From positions 1-35,057 of the forward strand of contig JAJZCM010000018.1 of NCBI GenBank assembly GCA_021846045.1: 35,057 nt of DNA. Reading direction: 5' to 3'. The stretch is from a bacterium (GTDB taxonomy: Bacteria > Elusimicrobiota > Elusimicrobia > UBA1565 > UBA9628). Of this stretch, positions 1 to 23,769 are shown piece by piece (the first letter of the stretch is position 1; the number at the start of each line of letters is the position of its first letter). A program made the translations under genes and the position numbers. Under the pieces are notes generated by a model. That model made no database searches, was not told the DNA's origin, and saw only the letters and a list, made by a program, of their open reading frames with translations.

Positions 1-1996
1 CGGTGGTTTCCGCCAAAGCCGTTGTCAGGGATTCTCGATTTTTCCGGAGGCGCTCAATGTCGGCCAAGGACAATCCTTCCTGCTCGGAAAGGACCGCGCC
101 GCCAAAAACCCAATGATCGCCGAAAACCAAGGGCCCCAAGGCGTAGCTTTCCGTGAAGAGAAACCGCATTAAATTCTCATAACGTGGATCAAATCTGATT
201 TTAGACAACAGCGGCAGCGCTTCTTCGGGGTAGTTTCTTTCAGAGGCATCAGTGGAAATGGAACTGAGAACTAAAAATCGGCAACGCCCGCGCCCCGAGG
301 ACTTTAAGAAATCGCAAGCATTTCGAGCGGCGCCGGAATCTTCGCAGACCACCGAATGGAGTCTTTCTCCCAATATATCCTGAACTTGAATTCGGATGGG
401 CTCTTCAACTTCAAAAAGAGATTGTAAAGTCCCCACGATGCCTAGAAGACCGGCGCGCACCACCGTACGCGCGCCCACCCAATAAGAATCCTGTTCGCCG
501 CGGGCCTCTAAAGCTTTCACATGGGCTTGCGTTTCCGCGATTTGGGAATGAAGGCGCAAATTTTCCTCATCCAATTCCTTTTCCTTAAGGCGAGCTTTCT
601 CCAATTCCGCCCGCGTCGCCTCCAACTCCGCTTTTGAAGTCTTCAAAACGTCTTCGCACTGCTCAAGCTCCGAACGAACCGCATCAAGGGCTCCGGTCAA
701 AGAAGCCGCGACTTCCATGTCTTTTCCGTATTCCCTCAAGGAAGAACGGATTCGCGCTTCTATTCGGGTTAAGTCCGACTCGCCTTCGGAGACTTTTCGG
801 GTTTCCAATAAAAGCCGCTCGGAAGCCGCGAGAACTTTTCGGCCCTTCTCCTCCCAGTCCGACTGAGACTGGGACACCCGCAGAGCCAAGCCTTCCATTC
901 TTTCCGCCTCGCCTTCTACTTCTTGCCGGAAAGACTGAAGCTCCCCTTCCAATTTCTCCAAATCCATGCGGGCCCGATCGAGATATTCATCGATGGAGAG
1001 CATCTTTTCCTTGAGGGTCATCTCTTCAGTCTGAAGAGACTTAACCCGCTCTGAGGCGGAAGCGGCCTCCCTGTCCCAGGATTGAATCCGTTCTTCCAAG
1101 CGCGCCACTTGAGCCTTGAGCTCGGAAGATTTTTTGCCCGCTTCCATCGCTTGAGCTTGAGCTTGGGCTTGTTCCAGGCTCAGAGCGGAGCTCTCGGCCC
1201 CGGCAACGTCGATTTCAACTTTCTTTTGGCCCAAGGATTCTTCCAAAGGCTGGCGCTTCAAGCGTCCTTCTTCAAGCAGAGCTTCCAGGCGGGATATCTC
1301 CTTCAAAATTTGAGAGGCCTCAGCCGCTGACAATTCTTCTTTGTATTTTTGAAATAGATTCGCTTTCTTGGCGTCTAAGTCGAGTTTTCTGACTTGTTCA
1401 TCGATCAAGGTACGAGCATCCGTGACGCGGGCCATGTCCGCTTCAACGTGCTCAAGTTTTTTAAGGGCTTCTTCTCTTCGCGCGTTGTATTTGGCGACGC
1501 CGGCCGCTTCCTCAAAGAAAGCGCGGCGTTCATCGGGTTTGGCCGAAATCATTGTTTCAACGCGGCCTTGATCAATGACGGCATAGCCTCCGCTGCCGAG
1601 CCCGGTGTCTAAAAAGAGATCGCGCACGTCTTTGAGACGGCATTGGCTTTTATTCAAAAAATAGAGAGATTCCCCGGATCTAAAAAGGCGGCGGGCGACC
1701 GTCACTTCAGAGAATGGAATCGGAAGGCCTTGGGAGGAATTATCAAAGGTCAAAGTCACTTCGCAAAAAGACAAGGCGGGTTTTCGAGTGGTACCAGCGA
1801 AGATAACATCGGTCATCGCGTCGGCGCGCAATGATTTCCAGGAGCTTTCACCCAAGCACCAGCGAACCGACTCCATGATGTTGGATTTCCCGCAGCCGTT
1901 GGGACCGACAATTCCGTTGATGCCCTGCTCAAGGTCTAAATGGGTTTTTTGCGCGAAAGATTTGTATCCGAAAATGTCCACCGCTTTTAAATGCAT
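1..1996 (-). CDS. smc: Chromosome segregation ATPase SMC, N-terminal half (cut by window edge)
   Basis: The reading frame is open from the ATG at 1996 to the window edge (665 codons, no stop), so about the first half of an SMC of usual length (~1150-1200 aa) is present. It begins MHLKAVDIFGYKSF, with a Walker A motif GPNGCGKSN at residues 31-39 and an R-loop-like region following it. A long charged heptad-type coiled coil comes next, and near the left edge a segment with VFGDHWVFGGAV that fits the hinge. SMC dimers work with ScpA/ScpB to compact and segregate the chromosome; the C-terminal ATPase half and any scp genes lie outside. The start is supported by a Shine-Dalgarno AGAGGA at 2004-2009, 7 nt upstream, and by a promoter in the upstream 59-bp repeat. 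The family is certain. Confidence 0.95.
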   Translation of the reverse strand, partial: MHLKAVDIFGYKSFAQKTHLDLEQGINGIVGPNGCGKSNIMESVRWCLGESSWKSLRADAMTDVIFAGTTRKPALSFCEVTLTFDNSSQGLPIPFSEVTVARRLFRSGESLYFLNKSQCRLKDVRDLFLDTGLGSGGYAVIDQGRVETMISAKPDERRAFFEEAAGVAKYNARREEALKKLEHVEADMARVTDARTLIDEQVRKLDLDAKKANLFQKYKEELSAAEASQILKEISRLEALLEEGRLKRQPLEESLGQKKVEIDVAGAESSALSLEQAQAQAQAMEAGKKSSELKAQVARLEERIQSWDREAASASERVKSLQTEEMTLKEKMLSIDEYLDRARMDLEKLEGELQSFRQEVEGEAERMEGLALRVSQSQSDWEEKGRKVLAASERLLLETRKVSEGESDLTRIEARIRSSLREYGKDMEVAASLTGALDAVRSELEQCEDVLKTSKAELEATRAELEKARLKEKELDEENLRLHSQIAETQAHVKALEARGEQDSYWVGARTVVRAGLLGIVGTLQSLFEVEEPIRIQVQDILGERLHSVVCEDSGAARNACDFLKSSGRGRCRFLVLSSISTDASERNYPEEALPLLSKIRFDPRYENLMRFLFTESYALGPLVFGDHWVFGGAVLSEQEGLSLADIERLRKNRESLTTALAETT

Positions 1997-2011: not shown

Positions 2012-2070
2012 TCTTTTGCGATTCAGAATCCAAAAAGTTATTTTAGCTTTTTTTCAGTCGGAAACAAGAG
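2012..2070 (-). repeat. 59-bp direct repeat, copy 1, carrying the smc promoter
   Basis: This segment is identical over 59 bp to 3433-3491. On the minus strand it holds a -35-like TTGTTT (2062-2067), a 16-nt spacer and a -10 TAAAAT (2040-2045), suitably placed to transcribe smc. The two copies flank the 1.36-kb segment with the Mrr-type gene. Identity and positions are seen; the promoter role is inferred from the hexamers. Confidence 0.9.
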
Positions 2071-2142
2071 TGCTCTGCTCTGGGAGCGTAAGGCATAGGC
2101 GATTTAATTCGGCCTAGAGGCCTTCAGGTTCTGCAACAATCT

Positions 2143-2256
2143 TTAAGTTGAGATCATTCGGAGCGTTTCGCTTTTTTGGCGACAGAAACAATCGCTGCAA
2201 GTTTCTCGGACACCTCGGAATTGATTTTTTAGCTTCTTAGGGGCTGACTTCTTCAT
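2143..2256 (-). CDS. Possible small basic protein overlapping the end of the Mrr-type gene
   Basis: A 37-codon ORF beginning MKKSAPKKLK starts in the stop codon of the restriction gene (ATGA overlap), the arrangement expected for translational coupling. I do not recognise the product. A one-base change in the A6 run after the tenth codon would instead give a Lys/Ala-rich C-terminus ending KKAKRSE, so this may be a frameshifted remnant. It lies wholly in the inserted segment. Either a small protein or a decayed gene end is possible. Confidence 0.25.
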   Translation of the reverse strand: MKKSAPKKLKNQFRGVRETCSDCFCRQKSETLRMIST

Positions 2257-3278
2257 TTGGCTTCCTCGGCAGTCCCAACGCTCTCGGGGATGAAAACTCG
2301 CTTGAGCGGCAACAATCCCTTGTAGCGGGCGTCGAACTGGTCGTAGTGTGCCAGGATGAGACCAACAAGTTCGTCGGCGTCGATGAGCCGCAGATTGCTC
2401 TTGCTCTTCGCGAACTCGATAGCCTTGGGCGTGAAGGTGCCGAGAGTGACAAGCAACCCAAACTCACTTGTTGCGACCTTGCCGTAAAGCGCCGAAACCA
2501 CGGGGTCGCCGACGCTACCGTCGCCGCTCTTGACCTGCACCTTGATGATCGGAGGCTCAAAGCCAAGCTCATCCTTGTGCGCGATAATATCGATGCCGCC
2601 GTCCGGGCCTTCGGGCGACACACGCGTCCGGTATCCCATCGTCCCAAGCAGATGGGCGATGAAATCAGCCAGGGGATGCCCTTTCAACTCCTGAGACAAT
2701 CTCTTTAGAATGAAATCCTCTGTTGTCTGCCCAATCTCCTCGGCGACGACGGCGACGGTCTCGTCCATGGCCGCCGGTTGCGGCGCGTCCTTACCCTCCA
2801 AGGCGGCGCGAAATTCCTCCCCGTAGGTCTTCACCTGGAAGAAGCTCATGGCAGAGCCGATCTCGTAGAGCGCACCTTGTGAAAAACTGGTTCTGGGCAA
2901 AATCTTTAGCCACTTCACGGGCCGAATATTTGGGTAGTGTTCGTTGAGGTGCGGTTGATATTTGTATGGTCCTTCGATTCGTCCAATGTGGACTTGGCGA
3001 TCGTGCTTCGAGGGGTAGACGATGATGTCTCCGACTTTCATCTCATGGATGAAGCGAAAAAGTTGGCCCGCATTGTTGGGGATCGCACCCAGCTTCTTGT
3101 CGGGATATTCTTCGGTGATCCGCGCCTTCAGAGCTTCACGATCCGCCTTGATCTCGCCGATGTCTCCGAGCTTGGGCCAGCCGAGGGCCACGCAGTTGTC
3201 CTTAACGAAAAGCGTGTAGGCATCGCCAGTTCTTCCGGCATGGATTCCCCAGACCGTCGCTTCGATATTATTGGCCAT
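2253..3278 (-). CDS. Mrr-type restriction endonuclease (probable type IV)
   Basis: This 341-aa protein has two parts. Residues ~1-150 (WGIHAGRTGDAYTLF, later VGDIIVYPSKHD) resemble the EVE/PUA-like modules often found in modification-dependent nucleases. Residues ~190-320 are an Mrr_cat-type PD-(D/E)XK nuclease: GPDGGIDI at about residue 229 supplies the metal-binding Asp and VQVKS at about 250 is the (Q/E)xK element. Such enzymes usually cut DNA with modified bases; no methyltransferase is nearby, which fits type IV, but the modification recognised cannot be read here. The start overlaps the stop of a truncated upstream frame (TGATG). The gene looks more GC-rich than its neighbours, has 59-bp direct repeats on both sides, and separates smc from its divergent neighbour, all signs of acquisition. 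Expression is probably from the repeat copy at 3433-3491. Confidence 0.85.
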   Translation of the reverse strand: MANNIEATVWGIHAGRTGDAYTLFVKDNCVALGWPKLGDIGEIKADREALKARITEEYPDKKLGAIPNNAGQLFRFIHEMKVGDIIVYPSKHDRQVHIGRIEGPYKYQPHLNEHYPNIRPVKWLKILPRTSFSQGALYEIGSAMSFFQVKTYGEEFRAALEGKDAPQPAAMDETVAVVAEEIGQTTEDFILKRLSQELKGHPLADFIAHLLGTMGYRTRVSPEGPDGGIDIIAHKDELGFEPPIIKVQVKSGDGSVGDPVVSALYGKVATSEFGLLVTLGTFTPKAIEFAKSKSNLRLIDADELVGLILAHYDQFDARYKGLLPLKRVFIPESVGTAEEAK

Positions 3279-3430
3279 CAGAGTTCTCCATTAAAAGCCT
3301 TCACCAACAGGGCGAATCTCAAGTGGGCCAGATACTTCGACTGAGATTCGGCCGCCGCCCGCGCCTTCTCGACTACCGGCTGTGTTTCGCTGCTGACCTT
3401 AATGCGCAATACAAATCGGTACAGCCCTTG
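3278..3430 (-). pseudogene. C-terminal remnant of an unidentified gene upstream of the Mrr-type gene
   Basis: In the frame whose stop (3278-3280) overlaps the Mrr start, about 50 foreign codons are open, with VEKARAAAESQ and ending LVKAFNGEL. The frame continues into the 59-bp repeat and meets a stop at 3464-3466, so the original N-terminus is missing. The Ala-rich helix and the AFNGEL-type end recall the C-termini of type I restriction specificity (HsdS) subunits, but this is too short to assign. It suggests the cassette was cut from a larger defence operon. Confidence 0.45.
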
Positions 3431-3432
3431 GC

Positions 3433-3491
3433 TCTTTTGCGATTCAGAATCCAAAAAGTTATTTTAGCTTTTTTTCAGTCGGAAACAAGAG
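3433..3491 (-). repeat. 59-bp direct repeat, copy 2, second copy of the smc promoter
   Basis: Perfect copy of 2012-2070. Its -35-like TTGTTT (3483-3488) and -10 TAAAAT (3461-3466) point at the Mrr-type gene, so the restriction gene would be driven by a duplicate of the smc promoter. A 59-bp identity is far beyond a usual transposon target duplication. Confidence 0.9.
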
Positions 3492-3524
3492 CGCGCGCCC
3501 AAAATCTTTCCCTGAGATGCCCGC

Positions 3525-3556
3525 GCACGCTGTCCCTTCGCGAGCAAAGAACGCAG
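3525..3556 (+). repeat. Dispersed 33-bp hairpin repeat, degenerate copy A
   Basis: Matches about 28 of 32 positions of the repeat at 23698-23730 and at 5495-5527 (minus strand). The family consensus contains CTCGCTTCGCGAG, a 5-bp stem with a TTC loop; this copy has mutations in the left arm. It lies just upstream of the promoter at 3561. Confidence 0.6.
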
Positions 3557-3560
3557 GCCC

Positions 3561-3589
3561 TTGACAGCCCCTCTCATTTGCGATACGAT
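3561..3589 (+). promoter_or_regulatory. Sigma70-type promoter for the 3596 gene (leaderless)
   Basis: A consensus -35 TTGACA (3561-3566), a 17-nt spacer and -10 TACGAT (3584-3589). Transcription should begin 6-7 nt downstream, at or next to the ATG at 3596, and no Shine-Dalgarno is present. The mRNA is therefore predicted to be leaderless. Confidence 0.7.
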
Positions 3590-3595
3590 TTTCGT

Positions 3596-4528
3596 ATGCT
3601 GCTTCATCTGCTCAAAGATGTCTGGTTCTATATCTCGGCTGGAGGCTTTCTTGCCAGCCTCGTTTTATTTGTCTTTCTTCTCGGGCAATATCGCCTCGCC
3701 GTCGAAACCGAAGAAGAAAATAATGCCTCTGATGAAAATTTAGAATCTGCCGAAGAAGCAGAAACTCCCACACCCACGCACGCCGAACAATTTAAAATCG
3801 AGCCGGAAGCCCCAATGGAAGAACCATCTCCAGCTTTAATATCGACTGTATCGCCAAGCGCCAACGAAACTCCCAAGGACGATCGGCCTCCGGCCTCAAC
3901 TGCGGCGTCAGAGCCGCCGGAAGAAAATCCAAAGCCCTCTTCTCAAGAAACTCCCCTCCATGCGGACGCGGAGATTAAAATTATTGGTGAGGGAATAAAT
4001 AAACTCGCGGAACAGTTTAATTCCTTGGAAAAAGTTTTTGTCGAGGAATCCCGCAGCAATCTTAAGGCGCTTGAAAAAATATCCGCGCTTCTTGAATATC
4101 AGACGGAGAGGTTATCTCAACTCAATGCGGCGCCGCCAAGCGCCAACAAAATTCCCGAGGGCGCTGGGGACGCTCGGCCTCAGGCCTCGACCGTGACGCC
4201 TTCAAAAGAAGAGGCGCATGCGGAAAAGACCTCGGAAGCCCCCCTCAACTCCGTAAAAAAGATAAAGCTTAAAGCTCCCCAAGCTGAGGATACAATCATT
4301 CTTAAGCCAGGCAACGAACCCCAACAGTTAGAACTTTCCATCAAAGAGTCTCCGAAAGAAGAACCACTGGCCACCAACGAGCCCTCGGCTGAAGTAAAAG
4401 TCGAACCGGCGGAAGAGCCTGCGGTAAAAACTAAAAGTCCCCTTAAGATCAAAAACCCAAAGGACATTGATGCTATTGATGGAGGGAACACGCTTTCGAC
4501 TCGGAAGGGCCCCGTCTGGCCCATTTAG
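3596..4528 (+). CDS. Membrane-anchored low-complexity protein with short coiled coil
   Basis: 310 aa, not recognised as a named family. Residues ~5-32 form one transmembrane segment (ISAGGFLASLVLFVFLLGQY). The remainder is Glu/Pro/Lys/Ser-rich and probably disordered, except for a likely coiled coil at ~128-175 (INKLAEQFNSLEKVF). Two copies of the ~61-bp coding repeat add SPSANETPKD..RPPAST and PPSANKIPEG..ARPQAST blocks. The start at 3596 keeps the membrane anchor and sits directly behind a good promoter; a longer frame upstream would run through the repeat and promoter and is unlikely. The C-terminus (RKGPVWPI) overlaps the signal-peptide region of the following PorV-like gene, so the two are probably cotranscribed. 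A periplasmic linker or envelope scaffold role is only a guess. Confidence 0.75.
   Translation: MLLHLLKDVWFYISAGGFLASLVLFVFLLGQYRLAVETEEENNASDENLESAEEAETPTPTHAEQFKIEPEAPMEEPSPALISTVSPSANETPKDDRPPASTAASEPPEENPKPSSQETPLHADAEIKIIGEGINKLAEQFNSLEKVFVEESRSNLKALEKISALLEYQTERLSQLNAAPPSANKIPEGAGDARPQASTVTPSKEEAHAEKTSEAPLNSVKKIKLKAPQAEDTIILKPGNEPQQLELSIKESPKEEPLATNEPSAEVKVEPAEEPAVKTKSPLKIKNPKDIDAIDGGNTLSTRKGPVWPI
3851..3902 (+). repeat. In-frame coding repeat, copy 1 (9 bp shorter)
   Basis: Shares CGCCAAGCGCCAACGAAA and CGGCCTCCGGCCTC with copies at 4133-4193 and 9986-10046 (minus). It encodes SPSANETPKD..RPPAST. It lacks 9 bp (three codons) relative to the others, so the frame is kept. Confidence 0.8.
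4133..4193 (+). repeat. In-frame coding repeat, copy 2
   Basis: A 61-bp copy in the same gene as copy 1, encoding PPSANKIPEGAGDARPQAST. It begins CCGCCAAGCGCC and ends CTCGACCG, as does the copy in the amidase gene. Confidence 0.8.
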
Positions 4529-5472: not shown

Positions 5473-5494
5473 GGGCTCGTTACGCGATCTCTTC

Positions 5495-5527
5495 CTGCGC
5501 TCCTTGCTCGCGAAGCGAGAGCGTGCC
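5495..5527 (-). repeat. Dispersed 33-bp hairpin repeat, copy B
   Basis: Read on the minus strand it matches 31 of 33 positions of the copy at 23698-23730. The stem is CTCGC/GCGAG. It lies between two convergent genes and has no T-run after the hairpin, so it does not look like an ordinary intrinsic terminator. Confidence 0.7.
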
Positions 5528-5548
5528 GAATCATCTCCAAGAAAGACG

Positions 5549-6349
5549 TTATGGTTCGGCCTGCGGACCTTGAATATTTTTAATCGCAAGCGCGATATAG
5601 ACCGAAGTCACCGCAAGTGAAACCAGCGCGGCTCCAGGCAAAGGACCGGGCATGAAAAGAAAGAGCGCCCGAACAATAACCATCAAGGTCTGGGCATAGG
5701 CGGCCACATTAAAGAGGGCATTGTAGGGCAATCGCGCGTCAAGAAGAGAATTAATCATCATCGCGACCAAGGAATAGAACAAAGACGCCAACACCTTCCA
5801 CGCCACGAACAAGGCGAAGACCAAAACCAAGACGAAGGGATAAAGGATTTTATCGAGGAAGCGGCGAGCCGACTCGTAGAAATCCGTGTTTATGACCAAG
5901 GGTTTGCTCATCGGCTTTTGAGATGAAAAATCAAATACCCTCAATTCCCCGGGACGGCGCATCACGTAAAGAGCGTTGGACGTCACATAGGCCATGACCT
6001 TTTGACTTTCCAGCATTTGAGGAGTGACAGGGTCGACGCGCGTCGTATCAATGGTCAAGGCTACATCGGGGTCATCCGGATGACGGATGGTCAAGGGAGC
6101 GGTCAAATTGGAGGTCATTTTACCGTTAGCCAAGGTCAAGACCGGCATGGATTTCTCAAGCCAGAAAAAAGTTTTGTCGATTTCGGGACCGACAAACAAC
6201 TTAAAAGCCACCGTTGATATCAGCGCAAAGGCGAAGGCAATATAACACAAATAGCCGACCGTTCTGGCCCAAGACTGCTGCGCCACTTTCTTGTAAAACT
6301 GAATTGAGGTTACGGCATTGACGGGATCTAATATCATCATGAGAACCAT
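5549..6349 (-). CDS. DUF1189-like integral membrane protein
   Basis: 266 aa from the ATG at 6349. One membrane segment follows the N-terminal amphipathic stretch (DPVNAVTSIQFYKKVAQQSW, then TVGYLCYIAFAFALISTVAF). A soluble extracytoplasmic domain of ~110 residues comes next, then three or four C-terminal segments beginning YPFVLVLVFALFVAW. This layout and the FYKKVAQQSW-type start resemble the DUF1189 family, which has no settled function. It is the last gene of the run that starts at 12140 and lies just behind gtrA (gap of 20-30 bp depending on start). A TTG at 6364 is an alternative start. No terminator is visible behind it. Confidence 0.6.
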   Translation of the reverse strand: MVLMMILDPVNAVTSIQFYKKVAQQSWARTVGYLCYIAFAFALISTVAFKLFVGPEIDKTFFWLEKSMPVLTLANGKMTSNLTAPLTIRHPDDPDVALTIDTTRVDPVTPQMLESQKVMAYVTSNALYVMRRPGELRVFDFSSQKPMSKPLVINTDFYESARRFLDKILYPFVLVLVFALFVAWKVLASLFYSLVAMMINSLLDARLPYNALFNVAAYAQTLMVIVRALFLFMPGPLPGAALVSLAVTSVYIALAIKNIQGPQAEP

Positions 6350-8998: not shown

Positions 8999-10922
8999 GA
9001 AGTTTTCTCCTTTTTCCGTGAATCTTGCGCTTTTTTCGTTTGCGCCTGGAAGCGACTTTCACTTTCGGCTTGGGATGGAAGTCCGAGGCCGCAAGCGCCG
9101 CCGTGTTTTTGAGAGGAGGCCTTGGCTTCAGGCGGTTAAAGAAAGACCTGATGCCGCCAACGATTGCGTTTGCAATTTTATTTTGAAAGGAGGGATTCAA
9201 AAGATCCGCTTCTTGAGCCGGGTCGCTTAAATAAGCTGATTCGGTCAAAATGGCCGGCATTTCCGTCATTCTCAAGACCAGATAATTCCCGTAGCGAGCT
9301 CCCTCATCGGGAAGAGGCAAGAACTTTTTATATTCCTTTTCAAGCGCGCGCGCCAAACCCAGGCTTTGAGGAAGATAGTAAAAGATCGAGAACCCATGCG
9401 CCGATTTAAACGGGTTCTCCCCGGGAGACAGCGTATTGTTGTGGATGCTGACAAAAACATCCGCCCGATTTTCCCACGCCAATTTCGGACGTTCGGCAAG
9501 CCCCACCTCCTCAGTATCGGTTTGGCGGCTTAAAATAACTTTCGCTCCATCTTTTTCCAGAATTTTCTGGACGCACTTGGCAATCGCAAGATTGACTTCC
9601 ATTTCTTCTGTTCCGAGTCCGCCGATGGCGCCGGGAGCCGAAGGCATATGCCCCGGGTCCAAAAAGATTGTGCGCCCTTGAAGAGAATTCGTGGCCGTGA
9701 CAGCCGGAGGGCGCCGCATTTCAATCACAAGAGAATTTCCTTCGTAAGAGGCATGGTACCCCCACAGATGTTGCCCGCGCCTTAAATGAATGGTCAGTTC
9801 GACCAAATCTTTCGCTCGTTGGCGAATACGGGCTTGGCTGACGAAAGAATCGTCCTGATAAACGATCCAATTGGTATGAATATGCGCATAATAGACGAAC
9901 ACTTTCAAGCGCGTCATATCCAAGGACTCTTCCATTTCAAAAGGGACCCGCTCAGACATAACGAGAACCACCTTCGCTCCATCCGCGGTCGAGGCCGGAG
10001 GCCGAGCGTCCCGAGCGCCCTTGGGGCTTTCATTGGCGCTTGGCGGCGTGGAACTTTTGACGATGACGCTGCCCGTTTCCGAGGAAGGAGGAGAGGAGTT
10101 AATCGGCAACAAATCGAGATGGCGGGTTTCAACCCATCCGGCTTGGTCTTGGCTCAAGGGAATATGGGTCCACGGGCCGATGGATTTCCCCACTCTCACC
10201 CGCGCGCCGGGTAAAAGAGTGAACATTTCCCCCGCGTCAGGCAAGGACTTCATCATCACGGGATACCGGCTTGTGACAAGCGCCACGCGCTCAAAATCGC
10301 CGATAAAGGAAACCTTCGCCTTCGTGTAAATTTTCCGGCCGCTCAAATAGAGCTCAATGGAAGAAGGCTTGAGAGAGTCCTTTTCCAATACCCGGTAAAA
10401 TCCTTGGTAGAGGCCGAGAGACGGATCGTATTCCAGCATCTTCACCCAGGAATGATGCGGAATTTTAAACCATGCCTTCCCACCGGGACTTCCCCGAAAT
10501 GCGACGCGCAATACATCTCCCGCGCGCAAAAACTCATTCGATTGAGGCATGACGCTTGCGGCATCAATCGCGACGGGGCGATTCGGCATCGGAGCAGGCG
10601 GCGACTGAATGACGATATTGCGGTCATAACTATAGCTGGCGCTTCCAACGCTTAAGGCCGCATGAAAAGTAAAAGTTCCGGCTTTGACCGGAAGCCAAGC
10701 GATAAAAGCGCCTGTTTTATAAACGGAAACGCTGGAACCGTTAATCTCAAAACGGCCTTTTGGGTTTGAGACAGAGCCCAAGACGAATTGATTGGGAGTA
10801 AAGGCGAAAGAATCGCCTTCACGCGGGAAAACGATCATGATCGGGACCGTGGACTGCCGAAGAGAGATGCTGGGCTGAGCAAACACCGGCAACGACAAGA
10901 ATAAAAAAGACAAAAATACCAT
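8982..10922 (-). CDS. Secreted N-acetylmuramoyl-L-alanine amidase (Amidase_3)
   Basis: 646 aa. A signal peptide (MVFLSFLFLSLPVFA) is followed by beta-rich regions including an Ig/filamin-like stretch (~20-105) and an SH3-like stretch (~210-275). Copy 3 of the coding repeat sits at ~292-312 as a linker. An AMIN-like region follows, then the catalytic domain at ~415-590: DPGH near 424, GTEEMEVNLAIA, SIHNN, and catalytic Glu in ILTESAYLSDP near 559, giving the expected zinc ligands. Such enzymes cut the amide between MurNAc and the stem peptide. An extremely basic tail (RRKRKKRKIHGKRRK) could bind wall or lipid phosphates. A TAAAAT box 6 nt before the ATG suggests a leaderless transcript in addition to readthrough from the DUF1015 gene. 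Confidence 0.92.
   Translation of the reverse strand: MVFLSFLFLSLPVFAQPSISLRQSTVPIMIVFPREGDSFAFTPNQFVLGSVSNPKGRFEINGSSVSVYKTGAFIAWLPVKAGTFTFHAALSVGSASYSYDRNIVIQSPPAPMPNRPVAIDAASVMPQSNEFLRAGDVLRVAFRGSPGGKAWFKIPHHSWVKMLEYDPSLGLYQGFYRVLEKDSLKPSSIELYLSGRKIYTKAKVSFIGDFERVALVTSRYPVMMKSLPDAGEMFTLLPGARVRVGKSIGPWTHIPLSQDQAGWVETRHLDLLPINSSPPSSETGSVIVKSSTPPSANESPKGARDARPPASTADGAKVVLVMSERVPFEMEESLDMTRLKVFVYYAHIHTNWIVYQDDSFVSQARIRQRAKDLVELTIHLRRGQHLWGYHASYEGNSLVIEMRRPPAVTATNSLQGRTIFLDPGHMPSAPGAIGGLGTEEMEVNLAIAKCVQKILEKDGAKVILSRQTDTEEVGLAERPKLAWENRADVFVSIHNNTLSPGENPFKSAHGFSIFYYLPQSLGLARALEKEYKKFLPLPDEGARYGNYLVLRMTEMPAILTESAYLSDPAQEADLLNPSFQNKIANAIVGGIRSFFNRLKPRPPLKNTAALAASDFHPKPKVKVASRRKRKKRKIHGKRRKLHARKS
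9986..10046 (-). repeat. In-frame coding repeat, copy 3 (in the amidase gene)
   Basis: Minus-strand 61-bp copy encoding PPSANESPKGARDARPPAST. It sits between the SH3-like and AMIN-like regions of the amidase, in the same reading frame as copies 1 and 2 in the gene at 3596-4528. Confidence 0.8.
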
Positions 10923-12151: not shown

Positions 12152-12177
12152 GCCTCGACTGTCAAGAAGACAGGCGG

Positions 12178-13257
12178 CTAATTTAAAGTCCGCGATAAGC
12201 GCCTGACCGCAAGGGTCGTCACCGCCGTTCCAATCAAGGTGATTTTGGACAGATTCCACCAGAAAACATGGGAATCTCCGCCTTTGAGCATAATATTGAT
12301 TAGCATCGTGATGAAATAGCGCAAGGGGTTGATATAGCTGATCCACGCGATAACCTTGGGAATGTTGTCCAGTGGAAAGCCGATTCCGGAGAGCTGCATC
12401 TGAAGAAAAAGAATAATAAAGCCGATGACCATCGTCCCCTGTTGCGTCGGCGCCAAGGTGAAGACCCAAAACCCCACTTCCACCATCGTCGTGATAAAAG
12501 CAAGTCCCCCCAGAAACAGCATCCACAAGGGCCCGCGCTCCGGAACCCCAAAACCAAAAACCCCTCCCGCGACGCATAAAAAGAAAATGACCATGGTGAT
12601 TACGATAAACGGAATCGTTTTTCCCAAAACAATTTCCCATTTTTTTATGGGAGCCATCAAAAGCATTTCCATGGTTCCGAAATCAGTTTCGCGCGCAAAG
12701 GACATGCTGCTTAAAGGCACCGCCACCAAACACAAAATCATTCCGATGATGGAAGGAACCATGAAATAAGGGGTTTTAAGTTCCGGGTTATACAAGGTTT
12801 TGACGGAAAAGCTGAAAATAGGCTTGGGAATATGCGAAACTTCCGCGACAATCGACTCAAGATAAGTCTCTATAATTCTGGCGCGGGCGCCATTTGAGGC
12901 GTCAATCAGGACCTGAAGCCTTCCGTTTTTTTCTGCGATCGATTTTTGGAGGCCTTCCGGCGGCGCAACTAAAGCGACTTCCGCTTCCCCTGATTTGACC
13001 CATTGATAGGGATCGCGTCCGTGAACTTTCGCCGGAACAAACCAGCCGGAAGAATTGGCCCGGTCGACGACTTCTTCCAAAACCATGTCGGGTTTTCCGG
13101 AAACAGCTAGGCGAATGTTTCTGGTTTCCGTGCGGATAATGACCCCGAAGGTAATCAACTGAATCGCCGGCAATGGAATCATGAAAATCAGCATCCGCGG
13201 ATCGCGCAAATTTTGAGAGAATTCCTTCCGCAAAAAACCCCAAATTGTCTTGTTCAC
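12178..13257 (-). CDS. ABC-2 type permease, second exporter permease (YbhR-like)
   Basis: 359 aa of ABC-2 permease layout: an N-terminal membrane segment after FLRKEFSQNLRDPRMLIFMI, a ~140-residue extracytoplasmic domain, then five C-terminal segments. The conserved SMSFARETDFGTMEMLLMAPI motif sits between them, and INPLRYFI lies near the end. It pairs with the permease gene upstream, overlapping it by 4 bp (GTGA), to form the membrane channel of the exporter. The start is GTG. Substrates of this family range from drugs to polymers and lipids; nothing here decides between them. Confidence 0.9.
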   Translation of the reverse strand: MNKTIWGFLRKEFSQNLRDPRMLIFMIPLPAIQLITFGVIIRTETRNIRLAVSGKPDMVLEEVVDRANSSGWFVPAKVHGRDPYQWVKSGEAEVALVAPPEGLQKSIAEKNGRLQVLIDASNGARARIIETYLESIVAEVSHIPKPIFSFSVKTLYNPELKTPYFMVPSIIGMILCLVAVPLSSMSFARETDFGTMEMLLMAPIKKWEIVLGKTIPFIVITMVIFFLCVAGGVFGFGVPERGPLWMLFLGGLAFITTMVEVGFWVFTLAPTQQGTMVIGFIILFLQMQLSGIGFPLDNIPKVIAWISYINPLRYFITMLINIMLKGGDSHVFWWNLSKITLIGTAVTTLAVRRLSRTLN

Positions 13258-14378
13258 GGCTCGACATCCTTCTTAAAACTTTTAATGGAAATCATAACCG
13301 TAATCAAGGTCAAGACAATTAGAGCGAAAAATTCGATTTTAAGATCTTTAAAGCCGGCTCCCTTTAAAAATACTGGGCGCAAAATTTGCATGAACCAACG
13401 AACGGCGAAAATCCCGGTCAGATGGCGAAAAAAAGGAGTCATGTTTTGAACAGGGAAGATAAAGCCCGACATTAAAAGAGCGGGCAAAAGCCCGACATTC
13501 ATCCCGGTCTGGACCGCCAATTGCTGCTGCCGAGTCAAAACCGAAATGAGAAGCCCTTGAGCCAGCATCCCCGCCAGAAAAATGGCGGAAGAGATAAATA
13601 AAACCCAGTAACTTCCCCGCATGGGCACATGAAAAACAATGCGCGCCAAAATAAAAACAACCCAGACTTCAATCATTCCCAAAATGGCGTAGGGAGCGAT
13701 TTTTCCAAAAATTATTTCGGAGGGACGCAATGGGGTTGCAAGCAAAAGCTCCATTGATCCGCTCTCCCACTCGCGCGCCACCGTCATCGCGGTCAAAAGA
13801 GTCGCAACCAAGCCATTAATGACGGCGATAAGACCGGGAACAAAAAACCAGTAGTTGTTGAGCTCCGGGTTAAATAGATATCGGGGCTTTAAACGGATGG
13901 GCCATTTCCAATTTCCCCAGCGTGCATTAATTCTCTTGTTGGCGGCAAGCTGAACCCCCGAGAGATATCCGGCAACGATACCGGAAGTGAGATTGTCGGC
14001 TCCGTCTAGAATAATTTGGGCCTGAGTGGGCTTTCCCCCCTCGATTCTCCCCCCAAAATGAGGATTGATGATCAAAATAGCCTTGTCTTTTTCCTCATCC
14101 AAGCGTTTGAGCGGATGCGCCGTCAATGCCAGTTTCTCAGGATGGAAATAATCCGACCCATGAAAAACTTCCACGAGTTTTCTTGATACCGGCGTATTGT
14201 CCCCATCTACAATACCGATGTGCACGTCCCTGATGTCAAAATTGATGGTAAAACCGAAAAAAATCAAAAATGCGATCGGAAGACCCAAGGCTAGGGAAAG
14301 TGTATAAGGGTCTCGTTTGAGATGGCTGAATTCTTTTTTGGCAATCGACCAGGCACGGGAAAAGCTAATCCCCCTCAT
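13254..14378 (-). CDS. ABC-2 type permease, first exporter permease (YbhS-like)
   Basis: 374 aa with the same layout: AKKEFSHLKRDPYTLSLALGLPIAFLIFFGF at the N-terminus, an extracytoplasmic domain, and then TAMTVAREWESGSMELLLATPL followed by five membrane segments. It overlaps both the upstream ATPase and the downstream permease by 4 bp. The order adaptor, ATPase, ATPase, permease, permease matches the E. coli YbhGFSR and YhiI-type systems, except that YbhF is a single fused ATPase there. Confidence 0.9.
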   Translation of the reverse strand: MRGISFSRAWSIAKKEFSHLKRDPYTLSLALGLPIAFLIFFGFTINFDIRDVHIGIVDGDNTPVSRKLVEVFHGSDYFHPEKLALTAHPLKRLDEEKDKAILIINPHFGGRIEGGKPTQAQIILDGADNLTSGIVAGYLSGVQLAANKRINARWGNWKWPIRLKPRYLFNPELNNYWFFVPGLIAVINGLVATLLTAMTVAREWESGSMELLLATPLRPSEIIFGKIAPYAILGMIEVWVVFILARIVFHVPMRGSYWVLFISSAIFLAGMLAQGLLISVLTRQQQLAVQTGMNVGLLPALLMSGFIFPVQNMTPFFRHLTGIFAVRWFMQILRPVFLKGAGFKDLKIEFFALIVLTLITVMISIKSFKKDVEP

Positions 14379-15283
14379 GTCCGGGCCTCGACCATTTTAA
14401 TGAAGACATCTTCCAAGGAAGGGCTAATCACCCTTGCCTCGATGCCCACTTCTTCGGCAAAGCGCTTGACTTCCGTCCCGGCTTTGAGCTCAAAATGCCA
14501 ACGCAGTCCGTGAGGAGTCAAGTTAACCACGCCAGGATGATCTGACAGACGTTTTTCCAAAGCCGGATCATTTCCGACATCCGCCTCATACAGGGAATGC
14601 GGAAATGCGGCATCTTTGAGCCTTTGGGAAGAATCAAGCGCGACGATTTTCCCGGAACGCATGAGGCTGATGCGCCCGCAATGCTCGGCCTCATCCATGT
14701 AATGCGTCGTAATAAAAACGGTTTTCCCCTCGGAGGAGACCTTGCGAATCAAATCCCAAAACTTGACGCGGGCCGCGGGAGAGACGCCCGCAGTCGGCTC
14801 ATCCAAAAATAAAATCTCCGGCTCGTGAAGCATCGAAATCGCCAGCGCCAAGCGCTGTTTGACTCCGCTGGAGAGATTTTTAACCAAGGTCTTGGGTGAG
14901 GAGTCGAATTCAACATACTCAAAAAGCTCTTTTGCCCGGGCCGCGATCTTGGCGCTCACCATTTTCCTGAGGCTTCCAGCGAAATAAATATTTTCTTTTA
15001 CGTTCAAATCATTGTAAAGCGTGAACTTTTGAGACATATATCCCACCCGCGCCTTGATCGCGTCCATATCGCGCCCAGGATCGCACCCGGACACGGAAAT
15101 GATCCCCGAAGTTGGGCGAATTAGCCCGCAAAGAACGCGAATCGTCGTCGTCTTCCCCGCGCCGTTGGCTCCTAGAAAGCCAAATATTTCCCCACGCTTG
15201 ACTGCAAAAGAAACGTCATCGACCGCCGCGAAGTCCCCGAAGCGCACAACTAAATTCCGGACTTCCGCCGCGTAATCGTTCAT
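14375..15283 (-). CDS. ABC exporter ATPase, second subunit
   Basis: 302 aa. Walker A GANGAGKTT near residue 40, Q-loop in YMSQKFTLY, signature LSSGVKQRLALA (Ser for the usual Gly at the third position), Walker B EILFLDEP and H-loop FITTHYMDEAEH. A C-terminal extension of ~80 residues follows, typical of ABC-2 drug-export ATPases. It energises the two permeases, probably as a heterodimer with the ATPase encoded just upstream. It overlaps both neighbours by 4 bp. Confidence 0.93.
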   Translation of the reverse strand: MNDYAAEVRNLVVRFGDFAAVDDVSFAVKRGEIFGFLGANGAGKTTTIRVLCGLIRPTSGIISVSGCDPGRDMDAIKARVGYMSQKFTLYNDLNVKENIYFAGSLRKMVSAKIAARAKELFEYVEFDSSPKTLVKNLSSGVKQRLALAISMLHEPEILFLDEPTAGVSPAARVKFWDLIRKVSSEGKTVFITTHYMDEAEHCGRISLMRSGKIVALDSSQRLKDAAFPHSLYEADVGNDPALEKRLSDHPGVVNLTPHGLRWHFELKAGTEVKRFAEEVGIEARVISPSLEDVFIKMVEART

Positions 15284-16023
15284 GCTGCCGCCGCCCGCTT
15301 GAGAAAGAAGGCCTCAAAACTGTCAACCTCTTCAAAGGTCAAAACCGAACGCGGCTCCCCTGAGGCGAGGATTTTCCCATTCTCCATCAAATGAACCTGC
15401 CCACATCTTTCGGCTTCATCCATGTAAGAAGTGCTCGCAAGAATCAAGATTGGGCTGTGGGCGAGAAGGCGGTAGAGCAAACTCCAAAATTCCCGGCGGC
15501 TAATCGGGTCAACCCCCGTGGTCGGTTCATCTAAAAGCACAACGTCGGGCGAAGGAAGCAAAGCGCACATAAGTCCCAGTTTTTTGTACATTCCCCCTGA
15601 AAGCTTTCCGGCTGGACGCAAGACAAAGTTCTCCATTTCCGTGGCTTTGAGTAATTCCTGCCTGCGCTCTTGATAGCGCGCTCGCGGAATGTCATAGAGA
15701 ACACGAAAAAAATCTAAGTGTTCAGAAACCGAAAGATCGGAGTAGAGGCTCTGGGCCTGCGGCATATACGCGATGCGCGGACGAACCTCTTCAAACGGAA
15801 CCTGGACGCCTGCCCGTTTAAAAATCACCTCTCCGCGATTGGGCTTCAATAGCCCCACCAAAATCCGCATCAAGGTCGTTTTTCCAGCGCCATCGGGGCC
15901 GATGAGTCCGTGAAGAGTGGATGAAGACAAAACGCAATTTGCGCCATTTAAAGCCTGATTGGGGCCCAGGCACTTAAAAATTTCACGGATTTCAATTGAT
16001 ACGCCTTGCGGATTAGGGTCCAA
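15280..16023 (-). CDS. ABC exporter ATPase, first subunit
   Basis: 247 aa. Walker A GPDGAGKTT near residue 43, Q-loop YMPQAQSLY, canonical signature LSGGMYKKLGLM, Walker B DVVLLDEPTTGVDP. The H-loop position reads ASTSYMDEAE: Ser stands where the switch His normally is (compare THYMDEAE in its partner). This suggests one of the two nucleotide sites of the heterodimer is catalytically weak, as in asymmetric ABC exporters. Its start overlaps the adaptor gene by 11 bp. Confidence 0.92.
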   Translation of the reverse strand: MDPNPQGVSIEIREIFKCLGPNQALNGANCVLSSSTLHGLIGPDGAGKTTLMRILVGLLKPNRGEVIFKRAGVQVPFEEVRPRIAYMPQAQSLYSDLSVSEHLDFFRVLYDIPRARYQERRQELLKATEMENFVLRPAGKLSGGMYKKLGLMCALLPSPDVVLLDEPTTGVDPISRREFWSLLYRLLAHSPILILASTSYMDEAERCGQVHLMENGKILASGEPRSVLTFEEVDSFEAFFLKRAAAA

Positions 16024-17092
16024 GACGCACCTCGATGGGCATACCGGGTTTCAATATTTTATCCGGATTATCAAAGGCAACCTTGATGCCGTAAACCAAG
16101 CGCGTTCTCTCCTTTTGAGTTTGGACATTTTTAGGCGTGAATTCCGCTTCGGGACGGATAAACTCGATATGCCCTGAAAAAGCCCTCATGTTCATTTCCG
16201 GCAGATATCCACTCGCCTCTTCACCTATGGACAAACGGGCCAGCATGGGTTGAGGAACATAAACATAAGCATAAACCGAGCGCAAATCTGCTAAGGAAAG
16301 AATCACCGTTTGCGGACCGGCCATATCCCCAGGCTCAACAGGACGATAGAGGACGGTGCCGCTAATCGGAGAAGAAATCTTGCACCAATTAAGGTGAATC
16401 TCCGCTTCCTGGTAGCGGGCTTTGAGCGCGTCCAACTCCTCCTGGGTGGCCGAACCCTGCTCGAATAACAGTTGCCCCCGGTTATAGTTTTTTTGAGCGA
16501 GATCAAACTCGGTCTGGATATCCCCGCAAGAAAGCGTCGCGACCAATTGCCCCTTTTCAACGACCGCTCCTTCGCGGGGGAATATTTCTGCGACTCTGGC
16601 CATGATGCGAGGAGCTACGCGCACCTCCACCGCCTCGATCGTTCCGGAATAAAGAAAATCTTTCTTTTCCTCAAGTCCCAGGTAGTTTTTGATCTTTTCC
16701 AGAATCGACGGCGAAGATTTCTCTTCTTCCGGAAGATCGCCAACGGCATCCTTGGTATTTAAGGGCCGCATCTCCTCCAATGACTGGTTCGCGGGTTTTT
16801 CCCCGGATTCAAGCATGCGCGCTTTGTTAAAGGACTCTTGGGAGCGATTTAAGTCTCCTTGGCACAATAAAATATTTCCCAATAGAACGTAGCCCTCCTC
16901 AAAGCGCGGATTCTGGCGGATGAAAGGAATTAAATCCAACAAAGCCGCCGAGTAATTTTGAATCTTGTAGAAATTTCGCGCTTCCTGATAGAGAGGATCC
17001 TGCCCAAGGAGTTGCTCATTTTCCTGAGCTTGGACCGCAACAAAAGCCGTCCCTAAAACAAGGCACAGAAACGCCCCAGCGGCTTTTTGCAT
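16013..17092 (-). CDS. Periplasmic adaptor (HlyD/RND-MFP type) with N-terminal TPR region
   Basis: 359 aa from the ATG at 17092, which gives a proper signal peptide (AAGAFLCLVLGTAFVAVQA). Residues ~30-105 look like tetratricopeptide repeats (YQEARNFYKIQNYSAALLDL, later GYVLLGNILLCQGDLNRSQ). Residues ~150-355 are a membrane-fusion protein: APRIMARVAEIFPREGAVVEKGQLVATL (lipoyl half), a short helical hairpin, then ISSPISGTVLYRPVEPGD (second lipoyl half) and a beta-barrel ending LKPGMPIEVRLGP. A TPR module ahead of an HlyD core is unusual. A longer frame upstream reads into the insertion sequence and is not real. It is the first gene of the exporter operon; no TolC-like gene is in view. Confidence 0.85.
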   Translation of the reverse strand: MQKAAGAFLCLVLGTAFVAVQAQENEQLLGQDPLYQEARNFYKIQNYSAALLDLIPFIRQNPRFEEGYVLLGNILLCQGDLNRSQESFNKARMLESGEKPANQSLEEMRPLNTKDAVGDLPEEEKSSPSILEKIKNYLGLEEKKDFLYSGTIEAVEVRVAPRIMARVAEIFPREGAVVEKGQLVATLSCGDIQTEFDLAQKNYNRGQLLFEQGSATQEELDALKARYQEAEIHLNWCKISSPISGTVLYRPVEPGDMAGPQTVILSLADLRSVYAYVYVPQPMLARLSIGEEASGYLPEMNMRAFSGHIEFIRPEAEFTPKNVQTQKERTRLVYGIKVAFDNPDKILKPGMPIEVRLGP

Positions 17093-17098
17093 AACACT

Positions 17099-17104
17099 AG
17101 GATA
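17099..17104 (-). promoter_or_regulatory. -10 box of the exporter operon
   Basis: TATCCT on the minus strand, exactly 6 nt before the adaptor ATG at 17092, with no Shine-Dalgarno. Its -35 position (about 17122-17127) falls at the inferred insertion-sequence boundary, so the insertion may have replaced the original upstream promoter sequence. Confidence 0.4.
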
Positions 17105-17126
17105 GCCAAAGACTGTTAAATTTTCA

Positions 17127-17145
17127 TGACACGCGAAACGTGTCA
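17127..17145. repeat. 19-bp inverted repeat at the insertion-sequence left end
   Basis: Perfect 7-bp arms TGACACG and CGTGTCA around CGAAA, 34 bp upstream of the exporter adaptor ATG. It has the form of a repressor operator (for example of the TetR type that controls YbhGFSR-like exporters). It also coincides with the position expected for the outer end of the insertion sequence, so it may belong to the element instead. Confidence 0.5.
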
Positions 17146-17262
17146 ACTCATTTGAAAATGTTACCGAAAAGGTCATAGGCCGTTTTATCGTTTTGTTGTC
17201 CTTATTTTTCTTTTTTGCTTCTTTTTTCTTTGTGAAAAGAATGTGAAAAGGGGTGGATAAGA

Positions 17263-18558
17263 TCACCACGTTTGAAGCCTGCGCTCCTTTCCATAAAGTC
17301 GTTTTGAACGCGCCACCTCCGGGGACCAGCCCGTGGATTTTGAACCCGACCTCAACCACGGGTTCCAGCGCGCTCCCACCGGTCTTGGGGGAGGCAGCGG
17401 CTGGACCGGCGTCTTGGACGCTAGGGAGTAGATCCTCTTTAACTTGATGTCAATAATCCTCGACAACTCAAAGGGATCCAAACGCTTGCGCAGTTCAACG
17501 AGTTGGGCCACTTTCTGAGTCCGCCCGCCTTTGCAGGCGACGAGGCGATCCAGCGGAGTCTGCGACTTATCGAACACGCGATGGGACTTCGAGCCTCGCC
17601 TCACCGTCTTGATGAGTTTGACCGAAGGCTCAAAGAGATTCTGAAATAAGCGCAGTTCGTTTCGGTAAAGGTCGTTTAAGGCCTCGACCGCTTGAGAGCT
17701 GTCATAGCGCAGCCACCCCACCCATTTGCGAACATGCGTTTTATTCTTCTGCTCGATGTGAGCCTGATCGTCTTTCTTGTAAGGTCTTGAGCGCGTCATT
17801 AAGATGCGGCGCTCCCTACAGTATTCTTGAATGACTCTGTTGATGAATTCGCTGCCGTTGTCAAGGTCAATTCCCAAAATGTCAAAGGGAGAATCTTCGT
17901 CCATCTCTTTGAAGGATTTTGACACCTCGGCCTCGCTTTTCCCCATCATGGCTCGCCTCTCCACCCACTGCGTCAGGATCGATGTTCTGTTGAGGGTTTG
18001 GGCAAAGAGACCCGAAGCGCTCAGACCGGAATGGCTGACCGTATCGGCTTCGGTCCATCCAGGCTCGCATACGTCCCTAAACTCGGTCCGTATCGGAATT
18101 TGATGCCTGAGCAGATAGGAGCTTTTCTTGGTCTTGCCGTAGATATGCTTTTTCAGTTCGAGCTTTTTGGCCTTAAGTCTGCGGTCGATGGTCGCGGGAC
18201 TGATGCGGTCCAACAGTTCCAGTTCTTGCGGACTTAACTTGAAACGCCGCCCAAGAGATTCCCGCCACAAGGGGATGGCCGCCTTGAGGTTCCAAGACCA
18301 TAAATAATTGCTCGCCCGCCACATCGCTTCAACCGCTTCCATCACCCTGTATCCGTAGACAATCCGCCGCCCGCGGGCTTTAATCGGCCGAACCTTCCCA
18401 GGCGCAGGACCGTTCAGAAGCCTGATCGCCGATTTGTGATGGCATTTGTAAACTGCACAAAACTCCTTGAGTAACTCGCCCTTCGCTTTCTTCCCGACCA
18501 CCTTGTGATACCGAAGATACATCTCTTTCATGTATTCCCACCTCGCATTGGTACTCAT
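17263..18558 (-). CDS. Transposase with rve-type DDE domain
   Basis: 431 aa from the ATG at 18558, which has a strong Shine-Dalgarno (GGGAGG, 8-9 nt upstream); the longer frame from 18663 starts in the terminal repeat. An N-terminal helix-turn-helix-like region (MSTNARWEYMKEMYLRYHKV) precedes an RNase H-fold integrase domain: EADTVSHSG (first Asp), GIDLDNGSEFIN (second Asp) and KKDDQAHIEQKN (Glu). The HVEQKN-like segment followed by HVRKWVGWLRYD is typical of a large group of COG2801-related IS transposases; I cannot fix the IS family by eye. The frame looks intact. It lies antiparallel to the kdsD-like gene. Confidence 0.9.
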   Translation of the reverse strand: MSTNARWEYMKEMYLRYHKVVGKKAKGELLKEFCAVYKCHHKSAIRLLNGPAPGKVRPIKARGRRIVYGYRVMEAVEAMWRASNYLWSWNLKAAIPLWRESLGRRFKLSPQELELLDRISPATIDRRLKAKKLELKKHIYGKTKKSSYLLRHQIPIRTEFRDVCEPGWTEADTVSHSGLSASGLFAQTLNRTSILTQWVERRAMMGKSEAEVSKSFKEMDEDSPFDILGIDLDNGSEFINRVIQEYCRERRILMTRSRPYKKDDQAHIEQKNKTHVRKWVGWLRYDSSQAVEALNDLYRNELRLFQNLFEPSVKLIKTVRRGSKSHRVFDKSQTPLDRLVACKGGRTQKVAQLVELRKRLDPFELSRIIDIKLKRIYSLASKTPVQPLPPPRPVGARWNPWLRSGSKSTGWSPEVARSKRLYGKERRLQTW

Positions 18559-18710
18559 CCGCGCTACCTCCCGATCCCCAACGGGGACCTTCGGAGAATA
18601 GTATAACCCCTCCTTTTTTCGGTAACATCTTGGATGAGTTGACCGATAACCCTTCGGTAACATTTAGCATGATTTGATGCGCGAAAAAGACTCAACCTTT
18701 TTTAAATTGC

Positions 18711-22809: not shown

Positions 22810-23769
22810 TCAGGCCCCAGGCGAGCTCGGGGTTCCGTCGGAATTGTAGAGTTTATTGACGAGTTCCCTGATTTTTTGATCATCTCCGCCCGTGCGATAA
22901 ATCTGATTGATATTTCTTATAAAGTCCATGGATTCCTTAATCACGGCGGGAGCATGGGGATCTTGCGCCGCGTTATTTAATCGCTGATAGGTCGTCAATA
23001 ATTCTTCTCCGGTCGGGTAAATCGCCTTAATGCAATCGTATTCTCGGTGGAAAGCATAACTCTCGACATCCTCCGTCGATTCATGGCAAATATTCGGGTC
23101 GGAAGCGTGCCCCGCTTCATGAAAGAGAACACAGGCGGCCAAGGGGCGACCGACGGCAACCGCGATGCGGGCCAGATGCAAATGGAGATTGATCATGCCG
23201 GCCCTTTTCCCGGCCTTGTGGCCACCGCAGATCTTGTTATAGAGTCCCAATTCATTGGACGGTAAATCGGCGTAGGAAATGCGTTTGAGAGACTCCATCC
23301 CGTCAATTTTAGCTAAGGTGGCCTCAACTGTCGAACCCGAGTCTTGACCTTCATTAGTTTCGATTCTATCCTTAGCTGCGGAAATCAAATCTTCAATCGT
23401 CGCGGGAGATTCTCCCAAGTTTGGTTCGATTTTGTACGGATGAAGATGAGGCCGAATCAGAATCGCCGCTCCCGGCATCCCGAATTCATAATTGGCCTCA
23501 GCTTTTTTATGGATGGCGAAAACGGAAGCGTTCTTATTGGCGACCAAGCGCATGATTTCCTGCGTTTCATGCCCCAAATCCAACGCATTGGAAGAAGTTT
23601 CATTGTCCCCCGCCGACATGAACATCGGGTTTGCGTAAAGCGCGGAAACGGAGAAAAGAAGCAGGCCGAAGCATAACATCTTTCCTAAAGACGCTTTGGC
23701 ACGCTCTCGCTTCGCGAGTAAGGAACGCAGAATCGCAAAAAAGCCCGTCCTCCATTGTTTTCGTTGCAT
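22810..23769 (-). CDS. Secreted HExxH protein, putative zinc metallopeptidase
   Basis: 319 aa, not recognised as a known family. H217-E-A-G-H221 in CVLFHEAGHASDPN is a zinc-protease motif, and CHESTEDVESYAFHREYDC, starting about 10 residues later, supplies candidate third ligands (gluzincin-like Glu). Four Cys in the same region could form disulfides. A hydrophobic stretch MLCFGLLLFSVSALYA (31-46) is a signal peptide. The ATG at 23769 is 7 nt behind TATATT (leaderless pattern), giving a long basic n-region that is encoded partly by the dispersed 33-bp repeat; a start at Met31 is the alternative. glpK follows after 6 nt. The peptidase role rests on the motif only. Confidence 0.6.
   Translation of the reverse strand: MQRKQWRTGFFAILRSLLAKRERAKASLGKMLCFGLLLFSVSALYANPMFMSAGDNETSSNALDLGHETQEIMRLVANKNASVFAIHKKAEANYEFGMPGAAILIRPHLHPYKIEPNLGESPATIEDLISAAKDRIETNEGQDSGSTVEATLAKIDGMESLKRISYADLPSNELGLYNKICGGHKAGKRAGMINLHLHLARIAVAVGRPLAACVLFHEAGHASDPNICHESTEDVESYAFHREYDCIKAIYPTGEELLTTYQRLNNAAQDPHAPAVIKESMDFIRNINQIYRTGGDDQKIRELVNKLYNSDGTPSSPGA
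23698..23730 (+). repeat. Dispersed 33-bp hairpin repeat, copy C (inside an ORF)
   Basis: Matches 31 of 33 positions of copy B and about 28 of 32 of copy A. Read with the gene on the minus strand it encodes LRSLLAKRERA, in the N-terminal extension of the secreted HExxH protein. It is either in coding sequence or in the leader, depending on that gene's true start. Confidence 0.7.

What the first reader, a model, noticed from the sequence alone, without database searches (positions are those of the whole stretch)
2012..3491. Restriction gene inserted with duplication of the smc promoter
A 1.36-kb segment holding an Mrr-type nuclease, a truncated upstream frame and a small downstream ORF is bounded by two perfect 59-bp direct repeats. 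The repeat contains the smc -35/-10, so both smc and the nuclease would have the same promoter: the insert took a ready-made one while smc kept its own. Insertion with long target duplication has been described for restriction-modification genes in Helicobacter pylori; this looks like a case in an essential gene's promoter. Repeats are seen; mechanism inferred.
Basis: partly seen in the sequence, partly recalled or inferred. Interest (0 to 1): 0.75.

Follow-up and report, generated by a model that had tools for sequence, protein, structure and literature searches.

The report
Nuclease gene inserted with duplicated promoter
A bacterium has acquired a single DNA-cutting defence gene exactly between two back-to-back promoters, and the event copied 59 bases of the smc promoter so that smc kept its own switch and the newcomer was given an identical one; it is a clean, confirmed case of a rare but already described way for such genes to settle in a genome.

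Summary
It is the only direct repeat of 16 bp or more within 8 kb in the window, and chance gives 13-15 bp. Three of four same-genus genomes have an empty site with one copy, and the smc side (to 2068) joins the divergent gene's side (from 3556) directly. The nuclease is absent from all four genus mates, and the promoter core occurs nowhere else in the genome, so both refuting outcomes were looked for and not found. The conserved smc -35/-10 is complete in both copies. The insertion point is a 6-bp gap between back-to-back -35 boxes, so smc, the divergent gene and the nuclease all have an intact promoter. Corrections: the nuclease is solitary (PADLOC PDC-S02; YTH/EVE-like N-terminus plus Mrr catalytic domain), so probably modification-dependent rather than half of an R-M pair; and a ~66-bp dispersed repeat (~47 copies in this genome) also sits in the gap, so the site gained 1,487 bp. 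It behaves like "insertion with long target duplication". The mechanism (template switching or Ku-independent joining) and promoter use are inferred. Ordinary kind, unusually clear case.

The parts
2012..2070 (-). Repeat copy 1: promoter and part of the leader of smc (-35 TTGTTT 2067-2062, 16-bp spacer, -10 TAAAAT 2045-2040)
   Evidence: Perfect match to copy 2; promoter hexamers conserved at the same distance from the smc ATG in G002-G004
3433..3491 (-). Repeat copy 2: identical sequence, predicted promoter of the nuclease (-35 3488-3483, -10 3466-3461; start near 3454, leader about 176 nt)
   Evidence: function inferred
2253..3278 (-). Solitary nuclease, 341 aa, PADLOC PDC-S02, N-terminal YTH/EVE-like domain plus Mrr catalytic domain with D230...QVK250 intact
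3278..3454 (-). 58-codon open frame overlapping the nuclease start; first codons lie in repeat copy 2; possible remnant of the donor's upstream gene
   Evidence: no relatives found
2139..2256 (-). 37-aa ORF overlapping the nuclease stop (ATGA), possible remnant of the donor's downstream gene; boundaries approximate
   Evidence: no family match for a related reading
2071..3432 (-). Unique inserted segment, 1,362 bp, 55.0% G+C against 50.6% for the window; no transposase, no terminal inverted repeats, single copy in the genome
3491..3558 (+). Copy of a ~66-bp dispersed repeat family lying between repeat copy 2 and the divergent gene; absent from the empty site of relatives
3561..3589 (+). Promoter of the divergent gene: TTGACA, 17 bp, TACGAT, 6 nt before the ATG at 3596; conserved in relatives
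1..1996 (-). smc, N-terminal 665 residues (gene runs off the window)
3596..4528 (+). Divergent neighbour gene, 310 aa, no Pfam match, adjoining smc in relatives

Best explanation
In the lineage of this genome, after it split from its genus mates, a 1.36-kb piece of foreign DNA holding one nuclease gene was joined into the 6-bp gap between the back-to-back promoters of smc and its divergent neighbour. In the same event 59 bp of the smc promoter and leader were copied, so they now flank the insert as perfect direct repeats. Shown: the repeats, the empty site, the absence of the nuclease in genus mates, the intact promoters on both sides. Inferred: the copying arose when a broken or stalled end at the gap primed synthesis into foreign DNA and then returned 59 bp back on the smc side (template switching, or equivalently fill-in of long staggered ends followed by Ku-independent joining). 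Inferred: the nuclease is transcribed from copy 2 and reads modified bases (YTH/EVE-like domain) to cut modified invading DNA, so it needs no methyltransferase partner. The position is explained by selection: it is the one spot where an insertion leaves both native promoters whole.
For: Perfect 59-bp repeat. Empty sites with one copy in three genus mates, blocks ending at 2068 and resuming at 3556 with adjacent coordinates in the relatives. Promoter core: two places in this genome, one in each of G002-G004. Nuclease absent from all four genus mates and patchy across the phylum, 29 of 341 genomes. Promoter hexamers conserved in G002-G004, with 6 bp between the two -35 boxes. The 59-bp copies are identical to each other but only about 77% identical to the relatives' single copies, which argues for a recent event. 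No Ku gene in this genome or its genus mates, no transposase or terminal inverted repeats in the insert. Modification-reader fold plus Mrr nuclease.
Against: The donor is unknown, so microhomology at the junctions cannot be scored. The genome looks like a draft (93 contigs) and no reads could be checked. Promoter scoring on its own is weak (a shuffled upstream region scores as well 18-30% of the time); the case rests on conservation. Ku may be missed in a 97%-complete genome.
Confidence: 0.75

Rival explanations
1. Campbell-type integration: a small circular DNA (about 1.4 kb) that already carried one 59-bp copy of the smc promoter next to the nuclease entered by a single crossover in that 59-bp homology.
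For: Gives perfect direct repeats and one-copy empty sites automatically.
Against: Needs a prior event to put an smc promoter on the circle; the core is absent from viral contigs and elsewhere in the genus; no integrase lies in the insert.
Confidence: 0.12
2. The insertion is old and the relatives lost it by recombination between the repeats, which would also leave one copy.
For: Such loss is reported for an H. pylori R-M system flanked by 80-bp repeats (PMC7494987).
Against: Would need loss in several genus mates while the two copies stayed 59/59 identical, though each differs from the relatives' copies at about a quarter of aligned positions.
Confidence: 0.06
3. The 66-bp dispersed repeat drove the event: its insertion, or a break at it, made the end that captured the nuclease, because the 59-bp repeat stops exactly where the element starts.
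For: Element and repeat edge coincide within 1 bp; the family has expanded in this genome, 47 matches against 1-7 in genus mates.
Against: Another copy at 5494 entered without extra DNA or a long duplication; selection for the 6-bp gap explains the coincidence more simply; no Y1 transposase was found in this genome.
Confidence: 0.12
4. Assembly artefact: a separate DNA sharing the 59 bp was wrongly joined to the smc region.
For: Draft genome; 59 is also, from general knowledge, a k-mer size used by some assemblers.
Against: Reads joining the insert to the promoter must exist on both sides; the core occurs nowhere else in the assembly; a 59-bp repeat is spanned by ordinary reads.
Confidence: 0.05

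Closest known systems
Insertion with long target duplication of restriction-modification genes (Nobusato et al. 2000; Furuta et al. 2010; as cited in PMC3874152, PMC3031569, PMC1643837)
   Same: Restriction-type gene absent from the empty site of relatives, flanked by a long direct repeat of a sequence present once in the empty site; no transposase. [quoted passage not shown]
   Different: Here the insert is one solitary nuclease rather than an R-M pair, the duplicated stretch is a promoter, and the lineage is unrelated to Helicobacter.
H. pylori HpyAII/HpyII system flanked by 80-bp repeats (PMC7494987, citing Aras et al. 2001)
   Same: Restriction gene(s) between flanking repeats of similar length, through which the genes can be deleted or restored.
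   Different: Deletion and restoration are reported there; here they are only possible. The repeat here carries smc's promoter.
PADLOC PDC-S02 candidate defence genes
   Same: Full-length match over 327 residues, E 9.5e-139.
   Different: Nothing apart from its location; the family does not usually come with flanking repeats.
MspJI/AspBHI-type and YTH/EVE-fused modification-dependent endonucleases
   Same: Modified-base reader fold plus a PD-(D/E)XK Mrr-like nuclease; best fold matches are MspJI and AspBHI, and the N-terminal domain alone matches YTH and EVE.
   Different: Different reader domain (N-terminal YTH/EVE-like rather than SRA); activity untested.

Membership tests
Insertion with long target duplication | Long perfect or near-perfect direct repeat at both ends of the inserted gene | tested here: met
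   59/59 bp
Insertion with long target duplication | Related genome has an empty site with one copy | tested here: met
   G002, G003, G004
Insertion with long target duplication | No transposase or terminal inverted repeats in the insert | tested here: met
Insertion with long target duplication | Associated with restriction-modification genes | tested here: inconclusive
   A restriction-type nuclease is present, but no methyltransferase in the insert
PDC-S02 / Mrr-catalytic nucleases | Full-length profile match and intact catalytic residues | tested here: met
   PADLOC E 9.5e-139; Mrr_cat E 2.2e-25; D230, Q248, K250 invariant in 28 homologues
Modification-dependent (type IV) restriction enzyme | Modified-base reader domain | tested here: inconclusive
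   The top 16 Foldseek hits of the N-terminal model are YTH/EVE, probability 0.91-1.0, but E is only 0.003-0.05 and TM about 0.45-0.5
Modification-dependent (type IV) restriction enzyme | Cuts modified DNA only | not testable with these tools
   Needs biochemistry
Transposon or integrative element | Own transposase or integrase, terminal inverted repeats | tested here: not met

The most novel reading that the evidence does not exclude
Solitary defence nucleases may settle into the gap between back-to-back promoters of core genes by an event that hands them a duplicated host promoter, without any mobile element or Ku. The insertion step itself would then supply constitutive expression, and the repeats would give a clean way out.
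Probability: 0.15. Interest if true: 0.7.

Novelty: new member of a known kind. Interest (0 to 1): 0.42.

Why it matters
It is a recent, almost unscarred insertion with long target duplication outside Helicobacter, with three empty sites for comparison, in a lineage where no Ku was found. It shows how a single foreign gene can enter a tightly packed promoter region of a core gene without harming either neighbour while gaining a likely promoter. The same repeats would allow exact loss by recombination, restoring the ancestral smc promoter.

Tried and rejected
Flanking repeats as a habit of this nuclease family: 33 homologous loci were searched and none has a tight flanking repeat (the few longer ones, L062, L076, L084, lie far out or look like dispersed repeats or paralogous genes). 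A second or donor copy in the genome: none. Phage or plasmid carriage: no viral contig, two phage records at 30%, plasmid relatives at most 49% identical. Relatives of the upstream open frame: none convincing. NHEJ: no Ku in the genus. REP-type Y1 transposase as mover of the 66-bp element: none found in this genome. Other long-duplication insertions in the window: none.

Full report
OBSERVATION. The two 59-bp copies are perfect and sit at 2012-2070 and 3433-3491. In 20 shuffles of the window the longest direct repeat within 3 kb is 13-15 bp; no other exact direct repeat of 16 bp or more within 8 kb exists in the window, and a 55-kb stretch of a relative has none above 17 bp. The repeat is real and far beyond chance.

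EMPTY SITE. The smc region was taken from the four held genomes of the same genus. In G002, G003 and G004 smc is 85-86% identical in protein and is followed upstream by one copy of the promoter and then directly by the divergent gene. Alignment blocks end at window 2067-2068 and resume at 3556, with adjacent coordinates in the relatives, so 1,487 bp were gained. G001 has a different neighbour and a diverged smc promoter and is uninformative about the site. The promoter core, allowing three mismatches, occurs twice in this genome and once in G002, G003 and G004. None of the four genus mates has the nuclease; 29 of 341 genomes of the phylum have some match, and apart from this genome only two carry relatives above 60% identity.

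POLARITY. Loss from relatives by recombination between the repeats would leave the same one-copy site. Against it, the two copies are identical to each other while each differs from the relatives' copies at about a quarter of aligned positions, and several genus mates would all have to have lost it. A recent gain is the simpler reading.

PROMOTERS. The smc -35/-10 pair (TTGTTT, 16 bp, TAAAAT; -71 and -49 from the ATG) is conserved in G002-G004 (G004 has TTGCTT). As a consensus match it is weak (shuffles match it 18-30% of the time); conservation is the evidence. The divergent gene has TTGACA-17-TACGAT six nucleotides before its ATG, also conserved. In the relatives only 6 bp separate the two -35 boxes. 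The insertion point is this gap. The repeat therefore begins just upstream of the smc -35 and runs into the leader; copy 1 keeps smc's promoter at its ancestral distance, copy 2 puts an identical promoter about 180 bp before the nuclease ATG, and the divergent promoter is untouched. No convincing terminator separates the nuclease from smc, so read-through into smc is possible.

THE EXTRA ELEMENT. Window 3491-3558 belongs to a ~66-bp dispersed repeat with about 47 matches in this genome and 1-7 in genus mates. Another copy in the window, at 5494, is also absent from the relatives. At the smc site it lies in the same 6-bp gap, so the 59-bp repeat ends exactly where the element starts. Tolerance of only this gap explains the coincidence without a causal link, but a link is not excluded.

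THE NUCLEASE. The 341-aa protein matches PDC-S02 over nearly its full length (E 9.5e-139) and Mrr_cat (E 2.2e-25). Catalytic residues D230, Q248 and K250 are invariant in 28 homologues. The whole model is closest to MspJI and AspBHI; the N-terminal domain alone (pLDDT 90.5) has YTH and EVE domains as its 16 best matches, moderate in TM-score. Such PUA-superfamily domains read modified bases in other endonucleases (PMC12707154). With no methyltransferase in the insert, a modification-dependent solitary enzyme is the best reading (inference). Homologues stand alone in unrelated surroundings, and the family does not carry its own flanking repeats.

MECHANISM. The insert has no transposase, no terminal inverted repeats and no second copy. 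No Ku gene was found in this genome or its genus mates, so ordinary NHEJ is unlikely. Copying that switches template into foreign DNA and returns 59 bp back, or fill-in of staggered ends followed by Ku-independent joining, gives this structure in one step; the choice between them is inference. A circle integrating by one crossover is the main rival.

COMPARISON WITH WHAT IS KNOWN. Insertion with long target duplication is described for R-M genes, first in H. pylori, with duplications in the order of 100 bp (PMC3874152, PMC3031569, PMC1643837). The original papers are not in the library and are cited through these. An H. pylori R-M system between 80-bp repeats can be deleted and restored (PMC7494987). 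The present case fits that kind and adds a solitary nuclease, a duplicated promoter of a core gene, and an unrelated lineage.

Noticed in passing
window 3491-3558 (+), 5494-5560 (-), 23671-23730 (+); G000:C29:61773-62134 (L106): A ~66-bp structured dispersed repeat family (consensus GCGCGTGCCTAAAATCTTTCCCGGAGATGCCCGCGCACGCTCTCGCTTCGCGAGCAAGGAACGCAGGC) with about 47 matches in this genome against 1-7 in genus mates, including a six-unit 66-bp tandem array; no Y1 (RAYT-type) transposase was found in this genome.
   Followed up: partly
window 12171-18695: A 6.5-kb segment replaced by about 70 bp in G004: an ABC-exporter-like operon with a transposase-like ORF (17263-18663, minus strand) at one end.
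   Followed up: no
window 3852-3886, 4131-4193, 9983-10048: A second dispersed repeat family (CGCCAAGCGCCAACG...GGCCTC), two copies of it inside the divergent gene's coding sequence.
   Followed up: no
window 3561-3598: The divergent gene's predicted -10 ends 6 nt before its ATG, suggesting a leaderless transcript, conserved in three relatives.
   Followed up: no
G000:C61:47192-47695 (L120): A second, distant Mrr-type nuclease in the same genome (30% identity to the first).
   Followed up: no
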